Source of the DNA: an uncultured Rubrobacteraceae bacterium
Lineage (GTDB): Bacteria; Actinomycetota; Rubrobacteria; Rubrobacterales; Rubrobacteraceae
Direction of reading: 5' to 3'
Assembly: GCA_902806095.1 (NCBI GenBank)
Contig: CADCVF010000046.1
Coordinates: forward strand, 28,132 to 89,552
DNA length: 61,421 nucleotides
In this document: positions 27,591 through 55,055 of the stretch, piece after piece
How the letters are laid out: every line of letters starts with the position of its first letter
Position numbering within the stretch: position 1 is the first letter of the stretch
The notes under the pieces: generated by a model
Database searches by the model: none
Seen by the model: the letters and a program-made list of their open reading frames with translations, nothing else
What the model was told of the DNA's origin: nothing
Translations under genes and position numbers: made by a program

Positions 27591-30365
27591 ATGGCCGACC
27601 CGCCCACCGGCACCGTCACCTTCCTGTTTACCGACATAGAGGGTTCCACAAAGCTGTGGGAGAAGAGTCCGGCAGGCATGAAGGCTGCCCTGGCCCGTCA
27701 CGACACCTTGCTCTGGGAGGCTATAGAAGGGCACGGTGGTTTCGTCTTCAAGACGGTAGGCGACGCGTTCTGCGCGGCCTTCCCCACCGCCTTCGGTGCC
27801 CTGGAGTCGGCGCTTGCGGCCCAGAGGGCTCTCTTCTCGGAAGCGTGGGGGGAGGAGACCGGTGCCCTGCGGGCGCGGATGGCGCTGCACACGGGGGCCA
27901 CCCATGAACGGGACGGAGATTATTTCGGCCCACAGGTAAACCGGGTGGCGAGGCTACTCGCGACCGGTCACGGCGGGCAGGTACTTCTTTCTTCGTCTAC
28001 TCAGGAGCTGGTACGGGATCAATTGCCTACGAACTCACATTTGAGGGACCTGGGGGAGAAGCACCTCAAGGACCTCGCAAGGCCCGAGCGAATCTTCCAG
28101 TTTGCGGCTCCCGACCTGCCATCGGAGTTCCCTCCTTTGAGGACCCTGGATTCCTACGCCAACAACCTGCCCTTGCAGGCCACACCGCTCATCGGGCGCG
28201 AACGGGAGGTTGAGGCCGCCTGTAGGAGGTTGCGCAACCCTGACACGAGGCTCTTGACCCTCGTCGGTCCTGGAGGCACGGGGAAGACTCGCCTGGGACT
28301 GCAGGTCGCAGCAGAGCTCGTGGACGATTTCGAGGACGGGGTTTACTTTGTGCCGATCGCCGCCATCACGGATCCCACACTGGTGGGCCCTACCATCGCG
28401 CGGGTACTAGGGTTGAGTGAGGGCGGCGGTGCCCAGCCACCGGAGGAGTTGCTCGAAGGATATCTGCGCGACAGGCAGACGCTCCTGTTGCTCGACAACC
28501 TCGAACAGGTCCTCGAGGCGGCGCCGGTCCTGGAGGGCCTGCTATCGACCGCCTTCGGCCTGAAGATCCTTGCCACCAGCCGCATCCCCTTGAGGCTCTA
28601 TGGTGAATACGAGTTCCCCGTTCCGCCCCTCTCATTGCCCGACCCCGCCTCTCTGCCACCTCTGGAACACCTCACCGATTACGAGGCGATCAGCCTCTTC
28701 GTGGAGCGGGCCAGGGCATTAAGGCCCGATTTCTCCCTGACGAAGAAGGATGGACCTGCAGTGGTGGAGATCTGCAAGAGGCTTGACGGGCTGCCCCTGG
28801 CTATAGAGCTCGCTGCGGCACGTATAAAGCTGCTCCCCCCGCGAGTGCTGCTAGACAAACTCAGCAACCGGCTCAAAATCCTCACTGGTGGCGCGCGAAA
28901 CCTGCCCGAGAGGCAGAGAACCCTAAGGAACGCTATCGAATGGAGTTACGGGCTGCTCGATGAGGGCGAGAAGCTGCTCTTCGGGAGGTTGGGAGTCTTC
29001 TCGGGTGGGGCCACCCTGGAGGCCATCGAGGCGGTGTGCGACGTGCGAGGAGATCTCCCCACGGACGTATTCGATGGCGCCTCCTCGCTCCTTGACAAGA
29101 GTCTCCTGCGGCAAGAGGAGGGGGCAGGGGGCGAACCGCGCTTCGTGATGCTGGAGACCATCCACGAGTTCGCGAACGCAAAGCTCGAAGGGAGCGGGGA
29201 GGCGGAAGCCGTGAGGCGTGCCCACGCCGAGTACTTCCTGGCCCTCGCGGAAGAGGCCGAGCGCATGTTGTGGGGAGCAGAGGATGCGGCGTGGTTGGAG
29301 CGGCTAGAACAAGAGCACGACAACATGAGGTCGGCGCTAGCCTGGGCTATAGAGCATGAAGAGGCTACGCTTGCCCTGAGAGTAGGCGGAGCGTTACGGT
29401 GGTACTGGTACATGGAAGGATATTACGGTGAGGGAAGGAGATGGCTCGAGGCAGCGCTGGGCAAGGACTGGAGCGCGGCGGCAGCGGAGGCGCGGGCCAG
29501 GGCTCTGGAGGGGGTAGGATGGCTGGCGTCGGGTCAAGGTGACCTTGATCGGGCGCAAGACGCTGCCAAAGAAGGGCTGAAGCTGAGCACTGAAGCGGGG
29601 CTGGGGGACGTAGTCGCAGCCGACCTGCAGAACGTGCTGGGGGAAGCCGTTGCGAGGCAACGGGGCGACTACGAGTGGGCAGCGGAGCTGCTAACAGAAA
29701 GCCTGGCGCTCCACCGGAAAGCCGGGGACATAAGAGGCGTCGCGTGGTCCCTGGGCAGCCTGGCTAACGTGTCGAGCGACCGCGGCAACTACGAGCAGGC
29801 GAAGGAACTCTATGAGGAAGGCTTGGCCCTGTCCCGAGAGTTGGACGGCGCGGAACTGCTCGGCGCTTACTTGACTAGCTTGGGCTACGAGTCCCTGCTC
29901 GAAGGCGAACCTGAGAGGGCTACTGCGCTAAACGAGGAGGCCGCGGCATTATATCGGAAACGAGGGCGTAGGGGCGGTCTGCAGCACACCCTCGCCAACC
30001 TCGGATGGGCGACGCTCCCGCGAGGTGATTACGAACAGGCCGAAACCTTACACAAACAAAGCCTAAGAGTATCCCAGGACCTGGGCGACAAGCTGATCGC
30101 CTCAGAGAGCCTGGAGGGATTGGCATGCACGGCCGGGGCTCAAGGAGAGGCCGAGCGGTCGGCGATATTGTTCGGGGCTGCAGAGAGACTGCGTGAGGCA
30201 GAAGGCTACCAGCTAGCTCCCAGAGACCATTCTCTGCGGGAGCCATATCTCGCGGCCGCCCGCTCCCTGCTAGACGAGGCGGCCTGGTCCGCGGCGCGGG
30301 AGAAGGGGCGTTCTATGGAGTTCGAAGACGCTGTAGTCTACGCTCTGGAAGGGCCCAACGGCTGA
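27591..30365 (+). CDS. Class III nucleotide cyclase-STAND ATPase-TPR fusion protein
   Basis: A 924-residue protein. Residues 1-170 are a class III cyclase: metal Asp15 (FTDIEGST) and Asp58 (FKTVGDAF), base-recognition pair Lys54 and Asp110 (GDYFG), and Asn117/Arg121 (NRVAR). All key residues are present, so catalysis is plausible; the Lys/Asp pair is the adenylyl-cyclase pattern. Residues about 195-560 are a STAND/NB-ARC ATPase with P-loop GPGGTGKT (226-233), Walker B LLLLDNLEQ and GLPLAIELAAARI. The rest, about 600-900, is TPR-like helical repeats, e.g. GNYEQAKELYEEGLALSREL. AAGGAGG precedes the ATG. It is divergent from a PycTM-like gene, and a paralog lies at 48353. Confidence 0.93.
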   Translation: MADPPTGTVTFLFTDIEGSTKLWEKSPAGMKAALARHDTLLWEAIEGHGGFVFKTVGDAFCAAFPTAFGALESALAAQRALFSEAWGEETGALRARMALHTGATHERDGDYFGPQVNRVARLLATGHGGQVLLSSSTQELVRDQLPTNSHLRDLGEKHLKDLARPERIFQFAAPDLPSEFPPLRTLDSYANNLPLQATPLIGREREVEAACRRLRNPDTRLLTLVGPGGTGKTRLGLQVAAELVDDFEDGVYFVPIAAITDPTLVGPTIARVLGLSEGGGAQPPEELLEGYLRDRQTLLLLDNLEQVLEAAPVLEGLLSTAFGLKILATSRIPLRLYGEYEFPVPPLSLPDPASLPPLEHLTDYEAISLFVERARALRPDFSLTKKDGPAVVEICKRLDGLPLAIELAAARIKLLPPRVLLDKLSNRLKILTGGARNLPERQRTLRNAIEWSYGLLDEGEKLLFGRLGVFSGGATLEAIEAVCDVRGDLPTDVFDGASSLLDKSLLRQEEGAGGEPRFVMLETIHEFANAKLEGSGEAEAVRRAHAEYFLALAEEAERMLWGAEDAAWLERLEQEHDNMRSALAWAIEHEEATLALRVGGALRWYWYMEGYYGEGRRWLEAALGKDWSAAAAEARARALEGVGWLASGQGDLDRAQDAAKEGLKLSTEAGLGDVVAADLQNVLGEAVARQRGDYEWAAELLTESLALHRKAGDIRGVAWSLGSLANVSSDRGNYEQAKELYEEGLALSRELDGAELLGAYLTSLGYESLLEGEPERATALNEEAAALYRKRGRRGGLQHTLANLGWATLPRGDYEQAETLHKQSLRVSQDLGDKLIASESLEGLACTAGAQGEAERSAILFGAAERLREAEGYQLAPRDHSLREPYLAAARSLLDEAAWSAAREKGRSMEFEDAVVYALEGPNG

Positions 30366-32390: not shown

Positions 32391-33308
32391 GTGGAGCTCA
32401 GGCAGGTTCGGACGTTCAGGGTGGTGGCGGAGGAGCTTTCGTTCTCGCGGGCGGCGGCGAAGTTGGGCTACGTGCAGTCGAGCGTGAGCGCCCAGGTGGC
32501 GGCGCTGGAGCGGGAGCTTGGGGTGCGTTTGTTCGACCGGTTGGGCAGGAGGATCTCGCTGACCGAGGCGGGATCTGTGATGCTCGCCTACTCCCGGGAG
32601 TTGTTGGTCCTCGCTGGGGAAGCGCGGGAAGCGGTGGTCGACGCTGGAGCTGGCGTGGGTGAAGTGACGGGGTCTCTCACGGTGAGCGCCCCCGAGACGC
32701 TCCTCACCTACAGGTTACCGAGGCTACTGGCCATCTTTCATGAGAGGCATCCCAAGGTCAGACTCTCGGTGAGCCCGAGTGCCATCGGCCGGTTGGTAGG
32801 TAGCATGCGCCGGGCGGTCGAAGAGGGCAGGGTGGACGTCGCATTCGTCCTCGATGGGGCCGTTGGTGCTCCTGGGCTTTTGGTAGAGCCCTTGATCGGG
32901 GAGGGTGTGAGCGTCATCGCCCCTTCCGACCACGCGCTGGCTTCGTCGATTTCGGTGGCTCCGCAGGATCTGTCCGGCGAGGCGGTGCTGTTGCCTGAGG
33001 CTCCAGAATCAGGGTGCGCCTACCGGGACCAGTTCGAGCGCCAGTTGGGAGAGAGAGGCGTGGTGCCGCCGGAGCGGATGGAGTTCCAGAGCATAGAGGC
33101 AATAAAGCAGTGCGTGGCCGCCGGCATGGGCGTCTCTGTCCTCATTAGCGCGGCTGTGGAAGAGGAGATCGCGGACGGCAAACTAGCCGCGCTGCGGTGG
33201 GAGGAGCCCTTCGAGGTCTTCACCCAGATGGTGTGGCACGAGAAACGGTGGAAGTCCCCGGCCCTGAGGGCATTTCTGGAGATGGCCCAGGAGGTCTTCG
33301 CCACATAG
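32391..33308 (+). CDS. LysR family transcriptional regulator
   Basis: A 305-residue regulator. The N-terminal winged helix-turn-helix (VELRQVRTFRVVAEELSFSR and AAKLGYVQSSVSAQVAALER) precedes the periplasmic-binding-protein-like effector domain (about 90-300). GTG 32391 was chosen because GGAAGGG lies 5-8 bases upstream; an ATG at 32352 also reads in frame but lies in the palindrome. LysR regulators normally activate or repress the divergent gene, here the MFS transporter, when a small ligand binds. Confidence 0.92.
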   Translation: MELRQVRTFRVVAEELSFSRAAAKLGYVQSSVSAQVAALERELGVRLFDRLGRRISLTEAGSVMLAYSRELLVLAGEAREAVVDAGAGVGEVTGSLTVSAPETLLTYRLPRLLAIFHERHPKVRLSVSPSAIGRLVGSMRRAVEEGRVDVAFVLDGAVGAPGLLVEPLIGEGVSVIAPSDHALASSISVAPQDLSGEAVLLPEAPESGCAYRDQFERQLGERGVVPPERMEFQSIEAIKQCVAAGMGVSVLISAAVEEEIADGKLAALRWEEPFEVFTQMVWHEKRWKSPALRAFLEMAQEVFAT

Positions 33309-33331
33309 AGTCGGTAACGGCTAGTGCTCAG

Positions 33332-33662
33332 TTACTCGACGTCCTCGCCTTCGAGCGGATAGCCTGCAGTTGCCCACTCCTCCAGCCCTCCGGCGTAGCG
33401 TCGTACGCGCTCGTATCCATGATCCTCAGGATCCTGAAGACCATCCGACTCGCGGGGCAGGGAGGACCGGAGTCATAGAGGACTATCTCATCTTCAGGGT
33501 CGAGCGCCTCGAGCGCTTCCTGGATCGTGCTGACTAGCATCGAGCCGGGAATGTGCATGGTGCGATACTCCCATTCGCCCAGGGTCATGACGACCTTGAA
33601 GCCGTCCCCCTGTCGAGCTTCTCCTTCAACTCGCTGGTGTCGATGAGATCCGTATCTTGCAT
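33332..33662 (-). pseudogene. Rhodanese-domain protein with two one-base deletions
   Basis: Joined across two frame changes, the protein reads MQDTDLIDTSELKEKLDRG, then DGFKVVMTLGEWEYRTMHIP, and after the second change GYERVRRYAGGLEEWATAGY. This is a complete single rhodanese domain of about 110 residues. The Cys is in VLYDSGPPCPAS. The first break is at the C5 run 33606-33610 (minus-strand G run); the second is near 33421-33430. The region is 331 nt; adding two bases gives 333, an exact codon count. Either the gene is dead or the assembly dropped two bases. Rhodaneses transfer sulfane sulfur. Confidence 0.8.
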
Positions 33663-33782
33663 TCGGCAAACTCCTTCCGGGTAGAGGCACTGCGAGCAGG
33701 CGTTAGTTCCTCGCGTCCACTTCCATGCGGTCGGGTGAACAATTGATCTGTCGAGGCCAGCACCTAGTCTTTCACGGACCCG

Positions 33783-35183
33783 CTAGGTTACACCGGCATT
33801 GTTTCCGGCGAGCCGGATCGGCAGTATCACTCGAAGGCGCGTCTCGCCCGGTTTGGACGCGACTTGAAGCTGTCCCCGGTGCTTGTGGACGACGATGTTG
33901 TAGGAGACATGCAAGCCGAGGCCCGTGCCTATACCAGGAGCCTTCGTGGTATAGAAGGGCTCGAAGATGCGTGGCTGAATCTCCGGGGGTATCCCCGGTC
34001 CGTCGTCGACGACTTCGACCGTGACGACGCTTTCCGCGGTGAAGGCGCGCAGAGTAAGCTCTCCCTGGCCTGCAAGGGCGTCGATCGCGTTGTCGATCAG
34101 GTTGGTCCACACCTGATTGAGCTCGGACCCGTAGGCCTCTATGCGCGGCACATCGTCGGCATAGTCTCGCGTGATGGTGATACCTGCGGTGATCTTCGGG
34201 CGCAGGAGCACCAGGGTGTTCTCCAGGCTCTCGACTACATCGACCTCCTGGATCGGCGCCTGATCCAGATACGAATACGTCTTGACGGCCTTGACGATGT
34301 CCGACATGGCTTCAGCGCTCTTACCTACCTCCTCGAGCAAGTCGTAGACCGACGAACTGGCGGCCAACCACCTGACCACGAAGGACAACTGAGTGGCAGA
34401 GAAGCGTTCGGCCACCCGTCCCAACTCATCCCTGTCCCAACCGGAGGCGACCAGCACCGGCGCGAGTTCCCAGGCCTCCCCGACACCGTGGTCCTCCAAC
34501 CACTCTTGCAGCCCATCCTCTAGCTCGCAGAGGGCCAGCGGGTCGCCCGGGGGGGCCGTGGCCTTGCGCTCTGGGAGTTCTTCTTGCAGGGCACCGAGCG
34601 ACTCCTTCTGGTATTGGTCGATGGCGGGCGAGTGGAGCCGGGCCGCTAAGCGGTCTCGCTCGGCCAGCGCATCACGCAGCTGTGCGGCGCTGCGCCTTAT
34701 AGCGGCCGCCGGATTGTTCAACTCGTGCGCAAGGCCTGCGGCGAGCGTACCAAGTCCGGCCATCTTTTCGTTCTGGATCAAAGCCGATTCCGTGCTGCGC
34801 AATCTGGATGTTACGGTGTGCAAGATCTTCAAGGACGCCGAAGGGCTGCACGAGAGCAGCGTCTGGAAGGCGACTTGGCTGATCACCAACAGACGGCACT
34901 CTTGCAACGTACCACCGAGGCTGATCGCGGCGCCTGCTCGAGCAGGGCCATCTCGCCAAAGAACTGCCCAGGCTTGTACAACGCGAGCAGGACGTCCTGG
35001 CTGCCCTGACGCTTGGTAACCTTCGCCGTCGAGGACGACAAAGAGCGAGTCGCCCTGGTCGCCCTCTCGCAGCACGAGGTCCCCCGCAGGGATGGAGACC
35101 GTCTCGGCCATCTGATACAGCCGCTCCAGGTCCCCTTCAGAGAGGTCGGCGAAAAGGGAGATCTTGCGTAACTCGTCGAACAT
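33783..35183 (-). CDS. Sensor histidine kinase with N-terminal cyclic-nucleotide-binding domain
   Basis: A 466-residue soluble kinase. Residues 1-120 are a cNMP/CRP-type sensor domain (MFDELRKISLFADLSEGDLE, EGDQGDSLFVVLDGE), then a coiled coil. The phospho-acceptor helix is KMAGLGTLAAGLAHELNNPA with His near 151. The ATPase domain has NLIDNAIDALAG (N box), DDGPGIPPE (G1) and GTGLGLHVSYNI (G2). Within the cNMP domain about 37 residues (34911-35021) are read in the wrong frame. The other frame there gives KRQGSQDVLLALYKPGQFFG and EMALLEQAPRSASV, the true cNMP core. Ligand binding is therefore probably lost as drawn. It lies downstream of a cyclase-TPR relic. Confidence 0.85.
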   Translation of the reverse strand: MFDELRKISLFADLSEGDLERLYQMAETVSIPAGDLVLREGDQGDSLFVVLDGEGYQASGQPGRPARVVQAWAVLWRDGPARAGAAISLGGTLQECRLLVISQVAFQTLLSCSPSASLKILHTVTSRLRSTESALIQNEKMAGLGTLAAGLAHELNNPAAAIRRSAAQLRDALAERDRLAARLHSPAIDQYQKESLGALQEELPERKATAPPGDPLALCELEDGLQEWLEDHGVGEAWELAPVLVASGWDRDELGRVAERFSATQLSFVVRWLAASSSVYDLLEEVGKSAEAMSDIVKAVKTYSYLDQAPIQEVDVVESLENTLVLLRPKITAGITITRDYADDVPRIEAYGSELNQVWTNLIDNAIDALAGQGELTLRAFTAESVVTVEVVDDGPGIPPEIQPRIFEPFYTTKAPGIGTGLGLHVSYNIVVHKHRGQLQVASKPGETRLRVILPIRLAGNNAGVT

Positions 35184-35208
35184 CAGCACGCTCTTGACCG
35201 GTCCTTGT

Positions 35209-35861
35209 TCAGCGATCGGCTGGTCCTGCCGGCTGAGGCTCGTCGGCATCGAACTTTAAGCTGCCGGGTGGACGAACCTGAGGCAGGGACAGCTCCTCAG
35301 TAATTCGTCCGGCTTCTGCGAGGTCTCGTTCCGCTTCAGCGACCTGACCCTGCGCTCGATGCAAGTCGGCCGAAGATTTCAGTACGCGCTCCAGGTAAGG
35401 TCTCATGTCATGACGGCGGTAGTAGTCGAGGGCGGTGTCGAGATTCTGCCTCGCACGCTCGTAGTCGCCCGGTTGCGTGTACCCCTCACCAAGAGCCTGT
35501 GCGATGAATGCGACGGTATACTCGTCGCCTACCGCGCGCGAACCGCGCGCTCAGCGTCGTCTTCGTGCGCGACCGGCGCACCGAAAAAGGCGAGGATCGC
35601 ATCGCCAAGCAACCTCGCAACCGTCCCATCGTATCTCTTGACCGAGGCGTTGAGGAAGGCGAATGCGCCGTTCATTATCTCCGTGACCTGCTCGGGGTCG
35701 AGCCGCTCGCCGAGCCCGGTGGAGTCGACCACGTCGGCGAACAGAACCGTCACGTACCTGCGTTCGCCATCGACCCGAACTTGGGCTTCGAGCCGGTTAC
35801 CGCAGTTCAGGCAAAACTTTGCGCCCTCGGGATTGGTCATCTGGCAGCGGGGACAGTCCAT
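35209..35861 (-). pseudogene. Cyclase-TPR protein relic with large internal deletion
   Basis: The 5' end encodes a zinc ribbon (MDCPRCQMTNPEGAKFCLNC) and the first part of a class III cyclase (VTVLFADVVDSTGLGERLDP, ARLLGDAILAFFG). After HEDDAERAVRAR the frame stops near 35530. The next frame reads GDEYTVAFIAQALGEGYTQP and TPR-like NLDTALDYYRRHDMRPYLER to a stop at 35209. This is the two ends of a cyclase-ATPase-TPR protein of about 1000 residues with the middle gone. The kinase gene with a cNMP domain starts 25 bases later, so the pair was probably a signalling operon. Confidence 0.78.
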
Positions 35862-35943
35862 CCCGACGCCCCTCTCGGTAGGCACTAGAAAGCCCAATAA
35901 TAGCTTGCCCGATCGAACCGATTCAACCGCTCTTGCGTCGGCG

Positions 35944-36456
35944 CTACTCGGGCGGGATGGGGCGCTCTTTCAACGCTCGGGCCACGTGGAAGTGGTTGTG
36001 GGCGCAGGTCGCGGCGGTCGTTTTCGACCATTCCTTGCCATGATCCGTGTCCGCGTAATCGGGACCTGGGCCTGGACCCATGTTCCAGTAAGTCCACGCT
36101 AGCGGCGGAACGCAGAAACCCAGCTCCACCGCCGCCGACGCCAGCTCCGAGATGCAGTTCTTGGCGCCGTCTTCGTTTCCGGTGAGCTGGGCTACGCTCG
36201 AGATCTTACCCAGCCAGGTCGGACTGGCGAAGATGATGATGTCGGAGGCGAGAATCTTCTCCCTCACCCCCGGCCAGTCATCCCCGCCGCCCTCGTCGGA
36301 GCTCACACCGGGGAGGATGTTCAGGTCAACGAGGCGTACGGTCTCACATTCGACCCCGTTACTTTGGAGCCCGGCGATGACCTCGTCCGCCAGCAATTCG
36401 GAGTTGGATCGCGCGGGAGACGCCTTCAAGGTGCAACTGAGCACCGTTGCTTTCAT
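35944..36456 (-). CDS. Flavodoxin-family NADPH-dependent FMN reductase, internally shortened
   Basis: A 170-residue flavodoxin-fold protein. The N-terminal loop is TLKASPARSNSELLADEVI, FMN-phosphate binding is through SxTR-like SPARSNS, and IIIFASPTWLGKISSVAQ is strand 3. The next segment jumps directly to LTGNEDGAKNCISELASA. In related proteins about 30 residues (the loop and helix after SSVAQ) lie between, so a near in-frame deletion at about 36186 is likely. The C-terminus (AWTYWNMGPGPGPDYADTDH) is normal. The remaining fold may not bind flavin well. Family is secure; function uncertain. Confidence 0.78.
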   Translation of the reverse strand: MKATVLSCTLKASPARSNSELLADEVIAGLQSNGVECETVRLVDLNILPGVSSDEGGGDDWPGVREKILASDIIIFASPTWLGKISSVAQLTGNEDGAKNCISELASAAVELGFCVPPLAWTYWNMGPGPGPDYADTDHGKEWSKTTAATCAHNHFHVARALKERPIPPE

Positions 36457-39885: not shown

Positions 39886-40944
39886 TCAGGTAGCTTCAGG
39901 CCGTGTAGTGGGGGCCGGTTGCGCCCTATCAGCGCCCCTCAGCAGATTGTACCCGCGAGTCTCGGGGAGCAAGAAGATGGCTGGGAGCACGAGCAGGGCG
40001 ACCACAATAAGGTAGATGGCCGGCGCTGTGGAGCTACCCGTGGCCGACACGAGGAAGGTCGCCACGATAGGGGCCGTGCCGCCGAAGATCATGTACCCGA
40101 GGTTGTAGCCGATGGAGGCGCCTGAGTAGCGCACCCTGGTCGGGAAGATCTCCACGATTATCACGACGACGGCGGAGACGACGAAGCTCCACGGCAGGGC
40201 TACCAGAAGCTGGCCCACGATGGCGCCGAAGAAGTTGCCGCTGGAGGCAAGCAAGTAGCCGGGCAGACTCAAGAGGATGAAGCCTGGAGCCCCGATCAGG
40301 AGCAGGGGCTTGCGCCCGATCCTGTCGCCTAGCATCCCGATGATCGGCACGAGCGGGACGGTTACGAAGAAGGCGAGGAAGTTCGCCGCGATGGCGGTGG
40401 TGTTGCTGAAGCCGACGACCTCCTGCAGGTAGGTGACGAAGTACGTCCCTAGAGTGTAAGCTCCGAGCGCGCTCAACGAAGCGATGGCGAAGACGAGCAA
40501 TATGCTGCGGCCGTGATCCCGGATCGCCTCCCTTGTCGGTGTGCTCTCCACCCGCTCTTCTTGCTCCCGAAGCGCCCTGAAAGCCGGCGTCTCATCCATC
40601 CTGAGGCGTATGAACAGGCCGACTAGGGCCAATGGTCCCCCGAGAAGAAACGGTATGCGCCAACCCCACGCCGCGTAGGCCTCTGCCCCGAAGCCTGCCG
40701 CGGCCGCGAACACGGTCAGGCCGCCGAGCAGCGAGGGCAGGGTGGTGAACGTCGCTGAAATGGAGGCGAAGAGGCCACGCTTCTCGTCAGGAGCGTACTC
40801 GGAGATGAACGAGGTCGAGCCGGTGAACTCCCCGCCACCAGAGAAGCCCTGTACCAGGCGCAACACGGCGAGCAAGATCGGGGCGAGGATACCGATGGTG
40901 CCGTAGGTCGGCAAGAGGCCTATGAGCATCGTCGCGCCGCCCAT
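39886..40944 (-). CDS. MFS transporter (metabolite:H+ symporter type) lacking its first two helices
   Basis: About 352 residues as drawn from ATG 40944. It starts GGATMLIGLLPTYGTIGILA and GFSGGGEFTGSTSFIS, which align to helix 3 onward of the MHS (proline/betaine, dicarboxylate) family. A TTLAVVVFI segment sits directly before it in frame. The normal N-terminal about 80 residues (helices 1-2 and the GRR loop) are missing; upstream, only a 30-residue N-terminal leader (MAAVSGGRGE..., ATG 41037) is readable in another frame. The gene therefore probably lost an internal piece and may not be functional. Placed in the MurNAc operon it may have imported wall sugars. Confidence 0.75.
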   Translation of the reverse strand: MGGATMLIGLLPTYGTIGILAPILLAVLRLVQGFSGGGEFTGSTSFISEYAPDEKRGLFASISATFTTLPSLLGGLTVFAAAAGFGAEAYAAWGWRIPFLLGGPLALVGLFIRLRMDETPAFRALREQEERVESTPTREAIRDHGRSILLVFAIASLSALGAYTLGTYFVTYLQEVVGFSNTTAIAANFLAFFVTVPLVPIIGMLGDRIGRKPLLLIGAPGFILLSLPGYLLASSGNFFGAIVGQLLVALPWSFVVSAVVVIIVEIFPTRVRYSGASIGYNLGYMIFGGTAPIVATFLVSATGSSTAPAIYLIVVALLVLPAIFLLPETRGYNLLRGADRAQPAPTTRPEAT

Positions 40945-42988: not shown

Positions 42989-44442
42989 GCGCGGGAAGCG
43001 AAGCTCTCAGGGCGGAAAAGCCCACGTCTACCAGGCTCTTCCTGGCGGTGGTCGCCTCGTCGGTCTTCGTCACGGTGCTTACGGCCACGATGATCAACGT
43101 CCTTATACCCCTGATGAGGGCAGAGTTCGGCGCCTCGTCGGCGCAGGTGGGCTGGGTCGTGACAGGATATTCGCTCGCCTACGCCATCGGCGTTCCGCTC
43201 TACGGTAGGATCTCGGATTTTTTCGGCGTTCGGCGTGTCTTCTCCGTGGGACTCCTGGGTTTCGCCGCCGGCGGCGTCATCTGTGCCCTCGCCCCTAGTT
43301 TCGCGGTCCTGGTCCTGGGACGAATAGTGCAGGGGGTCGGGGGAGCAGCAGTGCCCGCGCTCGCCAGCGTCGCCGTGGCGAAGGTACTGCCACCCGGACA
43401 ACGGGGCGGCGCTCTGGGCGTGGTAGCCTCCAGCGTAGGCATTGGGGCAGTCGTGGGACCCGTCGTCGGGGGAGCGGTCGGGCAACTTTTCGGTTGGCGC
43501 GCACTTTTCGTGGGCTCGCTCGTTTTGATGCTGGCCCTTATCCCCATCGCCCGGCGCGTACTGCCGAACGGCGGCTCTAGAGAAGATGAGCGCAGCTTCG
43601 ACCTGATCGGTGGCGCCCTGCTCGGCCTTGCGGCCGGGCTCTTCCTCTTCGGCATAACACAGGGACAGGTCGAGGGCTTCACCTCGTTCTCCTCGTGGGG
43701 CAGTTTCCTGGGAGCAGCCCTCGCTGCGTCCGGCTTCGTCTGGCGCATAAACGGAGTACCGAATCCGTTCGTCTCACCGGATCTCTTCGAGAATCGGGCT
43801 TATGTGGCGGCGGTGATCGTGGGGTTCTTCTCCATGCTCGCCAACCTTTCGGCGATCGTCTTCGTCCCACTGCTCCTCATCGAGATGAACGGGCTCTCAC
43901 CCGCCGCCGCAGGACTGGTTCTGACACCAGGAGCCGCCGCACTGGCGATCCTCTCTCCCATGACCGGAGGACTCTCCGACCGCATAGGCGTGAGGCTCCC
44001 CATCCTGGCCGGACTCGCGGTCATGGTCTTCTCGGTCCTCTTCCTCTCCACCTCCGGCGCCGGAGCGTCTCCGGTTATGGTCTCGGTGGGGATGTTGGGC
44101 ATGGGCATCGGCTTCGCCTTCATCCAATCCCCTGTAACCAACGCCGCGACCAACGCGCTCCCTGAGTCTGAGGTCGGGGCGGGGATGGGGATCTTCGCAG
44201 GGGCCTTCTTCCTCGGCGCGGGCACGGGGCCGGCGTTCATCGGGGCGTTCCTGGCAGCCAGAGAAGAGGCAGGAGCCGGCGCCATAAACCCCCTGTACAC
44301 ACTCGACGCAGCTCCTTTCTCCGACGCTTTCCTGGCGATGGTCCCAGCCCTGATCATCGCCCTCATAGCCGCGTTCGGATTGCGGGGCAACTTCGAAGGC
44401 AACAGGCAAAGCGAGCGATCCGGAAAGGAAAGTGCGCGATGA
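42985..44442 (+). CDS. MFS multidrug efflux transporter, 14-helix DHA2/TetA(L)-like
   Basis: A 485-residue membrane protein with about 14 helices. The N-terminal TRLFLAVVASSVFVTVLTA, VLIPLMRAEFGASSAQVGWV, YGRISDFFGVRRVF (motif A) and GRIVQGVGGAAVPAL (motif B) are classic DHA2 features, with AVVGPVVGGAVG as antiporter motif C. It is probably a drug/proton antiporter. The start ATG overlaps the stop of a flavin-reductase relic and its own stop overlaps the next start (ATGA), so it is translationally coupled on both sides. Confidence 0.92.
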   Translation: MSAGSEALRAEKPTSTRLFLAVVASSVFVTVLTATMINVLIPLMRAEFGASSAQVGWVVTGYSLAYAIGVPLYGRISDFFGVRRVFSVGLLGFAAGGVICALAPSFAVLVLGRIVQGVGGAAVPALASVAVAKVLPPGQRGGALGVVASSVGIGAVVGPVVGGAVGQLFGWRALFVGSLVLMLALIPIARRVLPNGGSREDERSFDLIGGALLGLAAGLFLFGITQGQVEGFTSFSSWGSFLGAALAASGFVWRINGVPNPFVSPDLFENRAYVAAVIVGFFSMLANLSAIVFVPLLLIEMNGLSPAAAGLVLTPGAAALAILSPMTGGLSDRIGVRLPILAGLAVMVFSVLFLSTSGAGASPVMVSVGMLGMGIGFAFIQSPVTNAATNALPESEVGAGMGIFAGAFFLGAGTGPAFIGAFLAAREEAGAGAINPLYTLDAAPFSDAFLAMVPALIIALIAAFGLRGNFEGNRQSERSGKESAR

Positions 44443-45091
44443 ACGAAGTGATCCCCGGTCTGTACGCATCGGCCCCCGAGCCACTCGGATTCGGGCCATC
44501 GCTGGAGATCAGGGCCTTCCTGCTGCAACGCGATCGGGGCAACCTGCTCCTCTACAGGCCGATACGCTGGAGCGAAACGTAGAGGAGATCAACGACCTCG
44601 GCGCCCTCTCGCGCCAATACCTGAACCATCGCCGCGAGGCCTCGCCCGCCTGCGACTGGGTCGCAGGCACGTTCGGCGCCCCGTTGCACTGCCACGATGA
44701 GGAGGCGGGATCCGTCTCCGAGACCTGCAATGTCGACGAGACTTTCTCCGAGCGCCACCACCTCGATGACGACTTCGAAGTCATCCCTACGCCGGGACAC
44801 ACTAGTGGGGCCACCGCCTTCCTCTGGAACACGGGTCAACATCGGGTCCTGTTTACCGGCGATACGATCTTCTTTCCCGGGGGCGAATGGGTCGCGGCGG
44901 TGCTCGACGGGGTCAGCGACCGGGAGCGCTACATCGAGAGTCTCGAATCGGTCCGCACCCTGGAGTTTGACGTCGTCGTACCCTCGGTAGCGGCCGCGGG
45001 CCAGCCCTACTATTCATTCACCGACCGGGCCGAGGCCGGGCGACGCATCGGCGCGATCCTCGATCGGCTACGACTCGGCGAGAACGGCTGA
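44439..45091 (+). pseudogene. MBL-fold metallo-hydrolase with one-base deletion
   Basis: The first frame from ATG 44439 reads MNEVIPGLYASAPEPLGFGP up to LLLYR; the second frame continues from ADTLERNVEEINDLGALSRQ. Restoring one base near 44558 gives 654 nt and 217 residues, an exact match in codons. The later motifs are HHLDDDFEVIPTPGHTSGATA and LFTGDTIF. The HxHxDH motif is changed to YLNHRREA, so the zinc site is atypical. It starts by 4-base overlap with the MFS stop. Real frameshift and read error are both possible. Confidence 0.78.
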
Positions 45092-48064: not shown

Positions 48065-48352
48065 GTCGCTACAAGATGCCGTTCTCCTGGAAAACAGAGC
48101 GACACTAAACCGGTCCGGGGAATTGCTCTGGGTGCTACCGGTATCGGTGAAAGTAGTTGCCAATTCGTTCGGGAACCACCACCAGTTCATTCAAGATTCA
48201 TCGCTGTGTGCTCTCATGGAGCAATCCGCGGATCAAGCGAAGAAGGAAAGCCGCGAAGGCAAGTACCTCACGGGGGCAAAGATGTTTCCACGCGGAGGAG
48301 ATATTGCTACCCGTGCTACAGTACACTCGAGCACAAGGAGGGCGCGCAGCTG

Positions 48353-51010
48353 ATGGCCGAACTGCCTACCGGCACAGTCACCTTTCTCTTTACCGATGTA
48401 GAAGGTTCCACCAAGCTGTGGGAGCGATACCCGGAAGCGATGCGGGCATCCATGGCACGCCACGACGAGGTCTTGCGCGGCGTGATGGAGTCCAGTGGTG
48501 GCTTTGTGTTCAAGACCATTGGCGACGCCTTCTGCGTGGCATTCCCTTCTGCGCCACACGCCTTGGAGGCGGCGCTCGCCGCCCAACGGGCGCTCCTCTC
48601 CGAGGGGCAGGAGAAGACCGGACCTTTGCGGGTACGGATGGCGCTGCACACGGGATCGGCCGACGAGAGGGGTGGCGATTACTTCGGGGCTCCCGTGAAC
48701 AGGGTGGCGCGCCTGCTCTCCGCCGGCCACGGCGGGCAGATCTTGCTGTCATCTGCCACCAAGGAGTTGGTTCGCGACGCGCTACCGGAAGGGGCGTCCC
48801 TGAGGGACCTCGGGGAGCGACGCCTCAAGGACCTCTTCCGTCCCGAGAGGGTCTTCCAGCTGATCGCTCCGGAGTTGCCCACGAGCTTTCCGCCCCTGAA
48901 GACCCTCGATGCGAGGACGAATAACCTTCCCGCCCAACCCACGCCGCTGGTCGGGCGCGAGTCGGAGCTCGGGGAAGTGCGCGACCTTTTGCGCGCAGAA
49001 GGGGTGCGCCTTCTCACCCTCACGGGGCCGGGCGGCATCGGGAAGACGCGCCTGGGCTTGCAGGTTGCGGCGGAGCTCCTGGACGAGTTCGAGGACAGCG
49101 TCTTCTTCGTGGCACTCGCCCCCATCACCGACCCCGCCTTGGTGGCATCTGCTATCGCCGAACCGCTGGGGGTCGTGGAGGCCTGGGACCAGCCTTTGGA
49201 GGAGGGTCTCAAAGACTACCTCGGCGGCAAGGAGCTGCTGTTGGTTTTGGATAACTTCGAGCAGGTACTCGGTGGTGTCCCGCTGGTCGGGAATTTGCTC
49301 GCTGCGTGCCCCAAACTCAAGGTTTTGGCCACTAGCCGCAGCGTGCTGAGGGTCTACGGGGAGCAGGAGTATCCGGTCCCTCCCCTAGAGCTACCCCGCC
49401 CAGGACGCCTGCCGCCAATCGATAGGCTGAGCCAATACGAAGCGGTCAGGCTCTTTATTGAGCGCGCCAAGGCGGCCAGGCCGGACTTCTCCGTAACCAA
49501 CGAGAACGCCCCGGCGGTGGCCGAGATCTGCGCGAGGTTGGACGGGCTGCCTCTGGCCATAGAGCTGGCTGCCGCTCGGATCAAGTTGCTGCCGCCCGCT
49601 GCGATGCTGGAGCGGCTCGACAGCCGTCTGAAGCTCTTGCGTGGCGGATCACGCGACCTGCCCGAGCGGCAGCGGACCCTCAGGGGCACCATCGAGTGGA
49701 GCCACGCCCTGCTCGAAGAAGGCGAGCAGGTGCTGTTCGCCCGCCTGGCGGTGTTCTCCAGTGGCCGTACGCTAGAGGCCATAGAAGCAGTATGCGACGC
49801 GAAGGGCGACCTGCCCATGGACGCCCTCGAGGGCGTCTCCTCGCTTTTGGACAAGAGCCTCTTAAGGCAAGAAGAAGGACCAGAAGGCGAGCCGCGCTTT
49901 GTGATGCTGGAGACCATCCACGAGTACGCCCGCGAAAGGCTCCAAGCGAGTGGCGAGGCCGAGGAGGTAAGGAGGCTGCACGCCGAGTACTTCCTGACGC
50001 TGGCCGAAGCAGCCGAGCCGGAGCTGAGCGGGGCGGACCAACTCGCGTGCTTGGAGTGCCTGGAAGCCGAGCACGACAACTTTAGGGCAGCCCTCTCGTG
50101 GTCGCTTGAGAAAGCGCCCGAGACGGCCCTCCGGCTGGCTGGGGCGCTGGCGCGCTTCTGGGAGAAGCGCTCTTACTTCTCCGAGGGGAGCAGTTGGCTT
50201 GAGGCGACGCTGCGCCAGGGCGACCGAGCCGAAGTGGCCACCACCGACTCGGCCACGCGGGCTAAGCTCTTGAGCGAGGCGGGCACGTTCGCGTTTTTTC
50301 GTACCGATTTCGACCACGCCATCGTGTTGCATGGGGAGGCTCTGGAGCTCTACCGGCAAGTGGGGGACGATAGCGGAGTTGCCTTCGCACTCATGTGCTT
50401 GGGGGCTCAACACATGGAAAAGGGCGACCATGAGCGGGCGGCACCGTTCTTGGAGGAAGCGCTGGCGCTCTCCCGCACAATCGGGGACAAGCGAAACACC
50501 GCTGGCACCCTCCACAACCTCGGGGAGGTGGAGCGCCAGAGGGACAACTACGAGCGAGCGAAAGCCTTGGGTATGGAGAGCATAGCTCTGTGGCGCGAGA
50601 TAAAGGACGACTGGAATTTATCCATGGTTGTAGGGTGGGTGGGATTGCTGGAGGTTTGGAGTGGCGATGAGCCCGACCTGGCAGAGAGGTTCCTCAAGGA
50701 TGCCTTGGCGCTCGAGAAGGAGCTTGGGAACTGGGCGTACGGGGCCTACTGCCTAGAGTCCTTCGCCGGCTTGGCCGGAGCGAGGGCGCAAGGGGCGCGG
50801 GCTGCGAGGCTGTGGGGTGCGGCGGAGGCCCTGCGCACAAGTATCGGTGCGCCACGCCCTCTCGATGCGCGCCTTCTCTACGAGCCCAGCATGGCCGCAG
50901 CGCGCGCCCAACTCGGCGAGGCGGCGTGGGAAGCGGCGTTTGCGGAGGGGATGGCGCTGTCGGCGGAAGAGGCCGCAGAGTATGCCCTAGGAGAAGGCGA
51001 CGATGCCTGA
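48353..51010 (+). CDS. Class III nucleotide cyclase-STAND ATPase-TPR fusion protein (paralog)
   Basis: An 885-residue paralog of the 27591 gene with the same domain order. Cyclase residues Asp15, Lys54, Asp58, Asp109, Asn116 and Arg120 are all present. The P-loop is GPGGIGKT, Walker B LLLVLDNFEQVLG, and GLPLAIELAAARIKLLPP marks the NB-ARC-like core. The last third has TPR-like repeats (KGDHERAAPFLEEALALSRT). AAGGAGGG precedes ATG 48353; the upstream open frame to 48206 is not needed. No PycTM-like neighbour lies beside this copy. The C-terminal TPR region has diverged most between the two paralogs. Confidence 0.93.
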   Translation: MAELPTGTVTFLFTDVEGSTKLWERYPEAMRASMARHDEVLRGVMESSGGFVFKTIGDAFCVAFPSAPHALEAALAAQRALLSEGQEKTGPLRVRMALHTGSADERGGDYFGAPVNRVARLLSAGHGGQILLSSATKELVRDALPEGASLRDLGERRLKDLFRPERVFQLIAPELPTSFPPLKTLDARTNNLPAQPTPLVGRESELGEVRDLLRAEGVRLLTLTGPGGIGKTRLGLQVAAELLDEFEDSVFFVALAPITDPALVASAIAEPLGVVEAWDQPLEEGLKDYLGGKELLLVLDNFEQVLGGVPLVGNLLAACPKLKVLATSRSVLRVYGEQEYPVPPLELPRPGRLPPIDRLSQYEAVRLFIERAKAARPDFSVTNENAPAVAEICARLDGLPLAIELAAARIKLLPPAAMLERLDSRLKLLRGGSRDLPERQRTLRGTIEWSHALLEEGEQVLFARLAVFSSGRTLEAIEAVCDAKGDLPMDALEGVSSLLDKSLLRQEEGPEGEPRFVMLETIHEYARERLQASGEAEEVRRLHAEYFLTLAEAAEPELSGADQLACLECLEAEHDNFRAALSWSLEKAPETALRLAGALARFWEKRSYFSEGSSWLEATLRQGDRAEVATTDSATRAKLLSEAGTFAFFRTDFDHAIVLHGEALELYRQVGDDSGVAFALMCLGAQHMEKGDHERAAPFLEEALALSRTIGDKRNTAGTLHNLGEVERQRDNYERAKALGMESIALWREIKDDWNLSMVVGWVGLLEVWSGDEPDLAERFLKDALALEKELGNWAYGAYCLESFAGLAGARAQGARAARLWGAAEALRTSIGAPRPLDARLLYEPSMAAARAQLGEAAWEAAFAEGMALSAEEAAEYALGEGDDA

Positions 51011-54655: not shown

Positions 54656-55055
54656 TTATAAGGGTTTGGAGCTCGGTTCGCTCTCACGGCCTGGACTGTC
54701 CGAAAAGAAACCCTCCGGCACCGGCACGAGCACCTCGCGGGGCACGGTGTGCTCTTGGCCCTCCAGGACCCGGTGCCGCCCGTTGGGCATGGCGTCCGCT
54801 AGCCGCCTCCCTACGTCGATCATCCACGGGTAGTCCGCCCCGCCGGTGGGCACGAGGGCGGGGACCGTGACCCTGCTGGCCTGGTCGACCGGGACCGTTC
54901 CGTCCCTACCGATGTCGCCCATGACCTCCGAGTCATAGGCCAGCGTGGGCGCCGACATGGGATCGGGGAAGATCTCCTCCTCATCTTTCTCCACTCCGTC
55001 GAAGATGGCTCGTGCGACGGACTCCAGAGAGGCCTTCGGTATGTCGGCGTCTCAG
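54656..55055 (-). pseudogene. Chimeric relic: SDR C-terminal tail fused to hydrolase C-terminus
   Basis: The minus strand reads DADIPKASLESVARAIFDGV then EKDEEEIFPDPMS, the end of a short-chain dehydrogenase. It runs in frame into APTLAYDSEVMGDIGRDGTV and RRLADAMPNGRHRVLEGQEH, the C-terminal half of an alpha/beta hydrolase similar to the intact gene at 55209. A stop lies just before the SDR part. The join is at about 54953. It marks a deletion that removed the SDR core and the hydrolase N-half. Confidence 0.72.

What the first reader, a model, noticed from the sequence alone, without database searches (positions are those of the whole stretch)
34911..35021. Cyclic-nucleotide domain of a histidine kinase read in the wrong frame for about 37 codons
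The kinase ORF is open throughout, yet in 34911-35021 the real cNMP core (KRQGSQDVLLALYKPGQFFG and EMALLEQAPRSASV) lies in another frame. Frame changes at about 35021 and 34911-34912 compensate each other. A gene caller would report an intact kinase with a meaningless segment in place of the ligand pocket.
Basis: seen in the sequence. Interest (0 to 1): 0.55.

Follow-up and report, generated by a model that had tools for sequence, protein, structure and literature searches.

The report
Frame-scrambled sensor in a decaying kinase
A bacterial sensor kinase gene carries two small deletions that cancel each other out, so the gene stays readable but the part that should bind a cyclic-nucleotide signal is replaced by nonsense; the genes on either side are broken too, so this is most likely ordinary recent gene decay.

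Summary
In the kinase ORF 33783-35249(-), the stretch 34913-35021 is read out of frame. The nearest ortholog (70% identical) has it in frame, and the window is the worst of 110 distinct family rows there while ordinary on both sides. The window is 5 nt shorter than the ortholog at one edge and 1 nt shorter at the other, so the frame is restored. Codon usage switches frame there, the Pfam cNMP match falls from 82.0 bits to 20.7, and AlphaFold gives pLDDT below 50 and no strands for residues 76-115, whereas an intact homolog folds. Substitutions in the shifted segment still follow the native frame, so the change is recent. Best reading: recent decay of a cyclase/cNMP-kinase/rhodanese cluster in a (probably Rubrobacteraceae) genome, leaving a kinase ORF open by luck or by weak selection. 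Assembly error cannot be excluded without reads. The phenomenon is known; interest is low.

The parts
33783..35249 (-). cNMP-domain histidine kinase ORF as a gene caller would report it (488 aa); the likely native start is near 35180, as in orthologs
   Evidence: residues 1-19 have pLDDT below 50
34913..35021 (-). out-of-frame segment (109 nt); in the native frame it encodes the end of the cNMP barrel and the phosphate-binding cassette
35020..35023 (-). upstream edge: window 5 nt shorter than ortholog L002 (exact place uncertain by a base or two)
34912..34913 (-). downstream edge: window 1 nt shorter than orthologs; frame restored
33783..34912 (-). kinase part in its native frame: H-box, N-box, G-box and F-box residues kept
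   Evidence: invariant columns include the window; Pfam HATPase_c 84.4 bits
35529..35897 (-). 5' remnant of a zinc-ribbon / class III cyclase / AAA / TPR gene, cut within the cyclase domain
   Evidence: 92.3% nt identical to G008 over 336 nt
35530..35536 (-). deletion junction in the cyclase gene; about 2.6 kb present in relatives is missing; short CGCG-type homology at the join
35209..35535 (-). 3' remnant (TPR tail) of the same cyclase gene, in another frame than the 5' remnant
33300..33690 (-). rhodanese-domain gene read in three successive frames (broken)

Best explanation
This is recent, real decay of a small signalling cluster. The ancestral arrangement, still seen in part in relatives, was a class III nucleotide cyclase gene (zinc ribbon, cyclase, AAA, TPR) next to a cytoplasmic histidine kinase with an N-terminal cNMP domain bearing a canonical phosphate-binding cassette, with a rhodanese gene nearby. 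In this genome the cyclase lost about 2.6 kb (shown by alignment), the rhodanese acquired at least two frame changes (shown by translation against intact homologs), and the kinase acquired two deletions that cancel in frame (shown). The product would be a kinase with an intact catalytic core and an unfolded, ligand-blind N-terminal domain (sequence shown; unfolding predicted; function inferred). Most likely it is a pseudogene or is on its way to becoming one (inferred).
For: Orthologs keep the core in frame. The cyclase and rhodanese neighbours are independently broken. The missing cyclase/TPR part is nowhere else in the assembly (best 33% identity; TPR query: only the C46 remnant). Window-L002 differences in the segment fall 3/1/16 on native codon positions, native-frame dN/dS 0.115, so the shift is recent. 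The cyclase remnant differs from G008 at 3/3/20 by codon position, also recent. The kinase branch carries excess amino-acid changes, 39 against 19 on the L002 branch with L003 as outgroup, p 0.012, as expected for relaxed constraint. IleRS (1088 aa), two full-length cyclase-AAA-TPR genes in the window and rpoB (1155 aa open) are intact, so indels are not spread evenly.
Against: No reads were available, so each indel could be an assembly or sequencing error. The kinase ORF remained open: two random indels closing within 110 nt without a stop has a rough chance of about 3% (my arithmetic, post hoc: 0.15 for spacing x 0.5 for frame x 0.43 for no stop, the last), which hints at selection to keep the frame. 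The catalytic motifs are kept and dN/dS of the rest is low (0.18 downstream), so the kinase may still work. The excess of changes is modest and rests on three sequences.
Confidence: 0.65

Rival explanations
1. Assembly or sequencing error: the frame changes and the cyclase junction are artefacts of a draft (probably metagenome-derived) genome, and the real genes are intact.
For: The assembly is a draft of 85 contigs with 3.37% estimated contamination. All breaks look recent, with native-frame substitution patterns, which is also what an artefact gives. Further frame breaks exist in the window, e.g. 44432-45091. A published survey expected BLASTp-validated singleton frameshifts to be mostly sequencing errors (PMC3711429, passages seen).
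Against: The breaks concentrate in neighbouring genes that are not housekeeping genes: two in the kinase, at least two in the rhodanese, one large one in the cyclase, while long housekeeping genes are intact. The missing 2.6 kb is not elsewhere in the assembly. Neither kinase site shows a long homopolymer in the alignment (by eye). The kinase branch has excess amino-acid changes that indel errors would not cause.
Confidence: 0.22
2. A working, signal-blind kinase: after loss of the cyclase the pocket was no longer needed; a first indel was tolerated, a second was selected to restore the frame, and the kinase now runs without cNMP control.
For: Catalytic motifs complete; low dN/dS outside the segment; compensation is closer than chance suggests (arithmetic). 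The signal maker is broken as well. A published mechanism exists in which a frame-shifting indel is bypassed and a nearby second one restores the frame (PMC3812077, section 17 read).
Against: The rhodanese neighbour decays without compensation. The segment is predicted disordered, so the domain is probably unfolded. The branch shows relaxed, not strengthened, constraint. The RR-TrxR fusion that usually accompanies such kinases is not adjacent; it lies on contig C9 with three other kinases.
Confidence: 0.12
3. A functional frame transition (programmed frameshifting or phase variation) that restores the native core in part of the product.
For: The native core is well preserved in the other frame.
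Against: It would need two opposite shifts 109 nt apart. None of the 108 other rows shown has a segment like the window's. No repeat or slippery run is evident at either edge (by eye). Preservation is explained by recency.
Confidence: 0.01

Closest known systems
Cytoplasmic histidine kinases with N-terminal cNMP-binding (PF00027) and HisKA/HATPase_c domains, often beside a response regulator-thioredoxin reductase fusion
   Same: Same domain order and 38-70% identity over the length; HATPase_c intact. Of 80 named genome-contig loci, 63 have the RR-TrxR fusion nearby and 6 a class III cyclase.
   Different: The cNMP domain is scrambled after its first third; no RR-TrxR neighbour in the window; the cyclase neighbour is truncated.
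Compensated (frame-restored) indel pairs in protein genes, as described for M.HaeIII orthologs (PMC3812077, passages and section 17 read)
   Same: Two nearby frame-shifting indels with an altered stretch between them and intact sequence on both sides.
   Different: Here the altered stretch covers a ligand pocket whose likely signal source is also broken, and the gene may be decaying rather than diversifying.
Bacterial pseudogenes with singleton frameshifts (GeneTack survey, PMC3711429, passages seen)
   Same: Not shared by any homolog seen here; adjacent genes degraded.
   Different: The net frame is restored, so simple ORF-based pseudogene detection would miss it.

Membership tests
cNMP-domain histidine kinase family | HisKA H-box and HATPase_c core in one frame | tested here: met
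   HATPase_c 9.4e-24; HisKA 21 bits, below its cut-off of 26.9, but H-box columns invariant
cNMP-domain histidine kinase family | complete N-terminal cNMP domain | tested here: not met
   PF00027 positions 2-27 of 89 only, 20.7 bits against a cut-off of 27.5; ortholog L002 82.0 bits over 2-86
cNMP-domain histidine kinase family | phosphate-binding cassette with G-E and P-R-S-A in the translated frame | tested here: not met
   present only in another frame of the window; in frame in L002, L003, L041 and others. The cassette's role is recalled knowledge
Frame-restored indel pair | two frame-shifting indels whose sum is a multiple of three, no stop between | tested here: met
   5 + 1 nt relative to L002, ORF open
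Pseudogene | relaxed constraint | tested here: inconclusive
   39 against 19 unique amino-acid changes, but catalytic motifs kept and dN/dS 0.18 downstream
Pseudogene | no functional product | not testable with these tools
   needs expression and an activity assay
Sequencing or assembly artefact | reads disagree with the assembly at the sites | not testable with these tools
   no reads held

The most novel reading that the evidence does not exclude
Loss of the neighbouring cyclase freed the kinase from its cyclic-nucleotide signal, and a second indel was then selected to rescue the reading frame, giving a constitutively working kinase with a scrambled sensor: a natural receptor decoupling by a pair of indels.
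Probability: 0.12. Interest if true: 0.45.

Novelty: new member of a known kind. Interest (0 to 1): 0.2.

Why it matters
Mainly as a caution. Gene callers and pseudogene screens would report such an ORF as an intact cNMP-regulated kinase, although its ligand pocket is gone; comparing the fit of sub-domains with orthologs catches it. If the kinase still works, it would be a small natural example of a sensor being uncoupled after its signal source was lost.

Tried and rejected
Programmed frameshifting or phase variation: rejected, since no homolog seen shares it and two opposite shifts would be needed. Gene conversion or import of a foreign stretch: rejected, because the segment in its native frame is the ordinary ortholog sequence (31 of 36 codons identical in amino acid to L002). 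The idea that the lack of stops in the shifted frame is itself striking: rejected (179 of 429 and 191 of 427 stretches are stop-free). Misplacement of the missing cyclase part on another contig: not found. Dating with a closer relative: G008 (same genus, 92.3% nt over the cyclase remnant) has no kinase on its contig, which ends in the TPR part, so the kinase indels could be dated only against G014. A promoter/terminator scan of 35150-36100 gave nothing decisive. Paper searches for RR-TrxR / cNMP kinase cassettes (one paper, not opened) and for compensated frameshifts or frameshift artefacts found the general phenomenon but not this gene; only PMC3812077 and PMC3711429 were opened.

Full report
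Check of the observation. The kinase ORF 33783-35249(-) is open for 488 codons. A three-frame translation of the minus strand shows the peptide KRQGSQDVLLALYKPGQFFGEMALLEQAPRSASV in a different frame inside it. A codon-usage Viterbi path that uses no homology makes the same switches (35018 and 34935), and sliding codon scores agree.

Comparison with relatives. The two closest orthologs in the 39 genomes of the family (G014, G015) and relatives at 38-42% identity keep the segment in frame. A genome-contig scan listed 80 relatives, the best 80 of 567 confirmed stretches. In an HMM alignment of all held loci, 110 distinct rows remained after dropping duplicates and gappy rows. The window row is the lowest of the 110 in the 35-column segment (score -0.59; next lowest -0.23; median 0.81) and unremarkable elsewhere: 27th and 38th from the bottom in the two flanks and 93rd in the H-box block. 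A slightly different filter gave 109 rows. Not every relative has the canonical phosphate-binding cassette; many have a degenerate one. The closest group (L002, L003, L041 and others) has it. Pfam cNMP_binding scores 20.7 bits over positions 2-27 in the window (cut-off 27.5) but 82.0 bits in L002 and 78.7 in L041.

Structure. AlphaFold2 on 17 sequences gave pLDDT below 50 and no strands for window residues 76-115. The same rows with the intact L041 first gave block means of 68-91 over that region, with strands at 59-65, 68-75, 95-98 and 102-108. The window's first 19 residues also scored below 50, which fits a true start near 35180 rather than 35249.

Neighbourhood. Upstream, 35529-35897 encodes a zinc ribbon and the start of a class III cyclase domain. 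It is 92.3% identical in DNA to G008, a genome of the same genus, over 336 nt. In G008 the gene runs on through cyclase, AAA and TPR parts to the contig end; in G014 the TPR part sits directly upstream of the kinase. In the window the reading jumps from the cyclase start to the TPR tail at about 35530-35536, with short CGCG-type homology at the join. Adding the G008 and G014 coordinates puts the missing stretch at about 2.6 kb (my arithmetic). It is nowhere else in the assembly: the best other match to the G008 AAA/TPR protein is 33% identical, and the TPR query finds only the remnant. Downstream, the rhodanese gene 33300-33690 reads in three successive frames; only residues 23-91 of its ORF match the intact homologs in G014 and G062 (Pfam Rhodanese in L132). 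G062 also has the rhodanese beside the cyclase. In two Devosia records, L048 and L053, the order is cyclase-AAA-TPR, RR-thioredoxin reductase fusion, kinase. Among 80 named loci 63 have the RR-TrxR fusion nearby and 6 a cyclase. In the window's genome the RR-TrxR fusion lies on contig C9, followed by three other kinases.

Age and constraint. In the segment, window-L002 differences fall 3, 1 and 16 on the native codon positions (36 codons), native-frame dN/dS 0.115; outside they fall 77, 48 and 149 (423 codons), dN/dS 0.16-0.18. So the native frame was under selection until recently, or the shift is an artefact. The window branch has 39 unique amino-acid changes against 19 for L002 with L003 as outgroup (p 0.012; downstream part alone 33 against 17, p 0.033), which suggests relaxed constraint. 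The cyclase remnant differs from G008 at 3, 3 and 20 positions by codon position, so that deletion is recent as well.

Real or artefact. Of 50 window ORFs sent to Pfam had a match at 1e-5. Two of these 37 clearly lack the start of their best family (39886-40944, 44432-45091), one is ambiguous (35944-36456), and I did not check the rest one by one against relatives. Long genes such as IleRS (1088 aa) and two full cyclase-AAA-TPR genes are open, and rpoB has a 1155-aa open frame. Breaks cluster at 33.3-35.5 kb. This favours real decay over uniform error, but without reads it does not settle it.

Organism. The window lies on G000 contig C46, in a genome of 3.83 Mb and 85 contigs. A same-genus genome has a contig whose length equals a record titled uncultured Rubrobacteraceae AVDCRST_MAG02 (86961 bases), so the family is inferred to be Rubrobacteraceae.

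Mechanism. Shown: the frame changes, the truncated cyclase, the split rhodanese and the intact kinase motifs. Predicted: an unfolded cNMP domain. Inferred: loss of cNMP control and progressive loss of the cluster. Whether the second kinase indel was selected is open. A rough post hoc chance of about 3% for such a tidy compensation, and the published notion that a bypassed indel favours a nearby second one (PMC3812077, section 17 read), keep that reading alive; uncompensated decay next door and the relaxed rate speak for plain decay.

Verdict. The kind is known (frame-restored indel pair in a decaying gene), and the interest is low apart from the annotation caution and the coherent loss of both cyclase and receptor.

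Noticed in passing
35209-35897 (-): Class III cyclase/AAA/TPR gene with an internal deletion of about 2.6 kb; intact parts in G008 and G014.
   Followed up: yes
33300-33690 (-): Rhodanese-domain gene read in three successive frames; intact homologs in G014 and G062.
   Followed up: partly
44432-45091 (+): Metallo-beta-lactamase-fold gene whose first about 41 residues are off frame; the likely true N-terminus lies in another frame.
   Followed up: partly
39886-40944 (-): MFS transporter whose Pfam match starts at profile position 65 of 347; nothing like the missing N-terminus upstream in any frame by eye.
   Followed up: no
54700-55050 (-): One open stretch that by eye joins a short-chain-dehydrogenase-like tail to an alpha/beta-hydrolase-like tail; possible remnants of two genes.
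   Followed up: no
27591-30365 and 48206-51010 (+): Two further full-length cyclase-AAA-TPR genes, so the window once held three of this architecture.
   Followed up: no
L048 and L053 (Devosia records): Cassette of cyclase-AAA-TPR, response regulator-thioredoxin reductase fusion and cNMP histidine kinase in a row; a possible cNMP/redox signalling unit. One paper search returned a single paper, which I did not open.
   Followed up: partly
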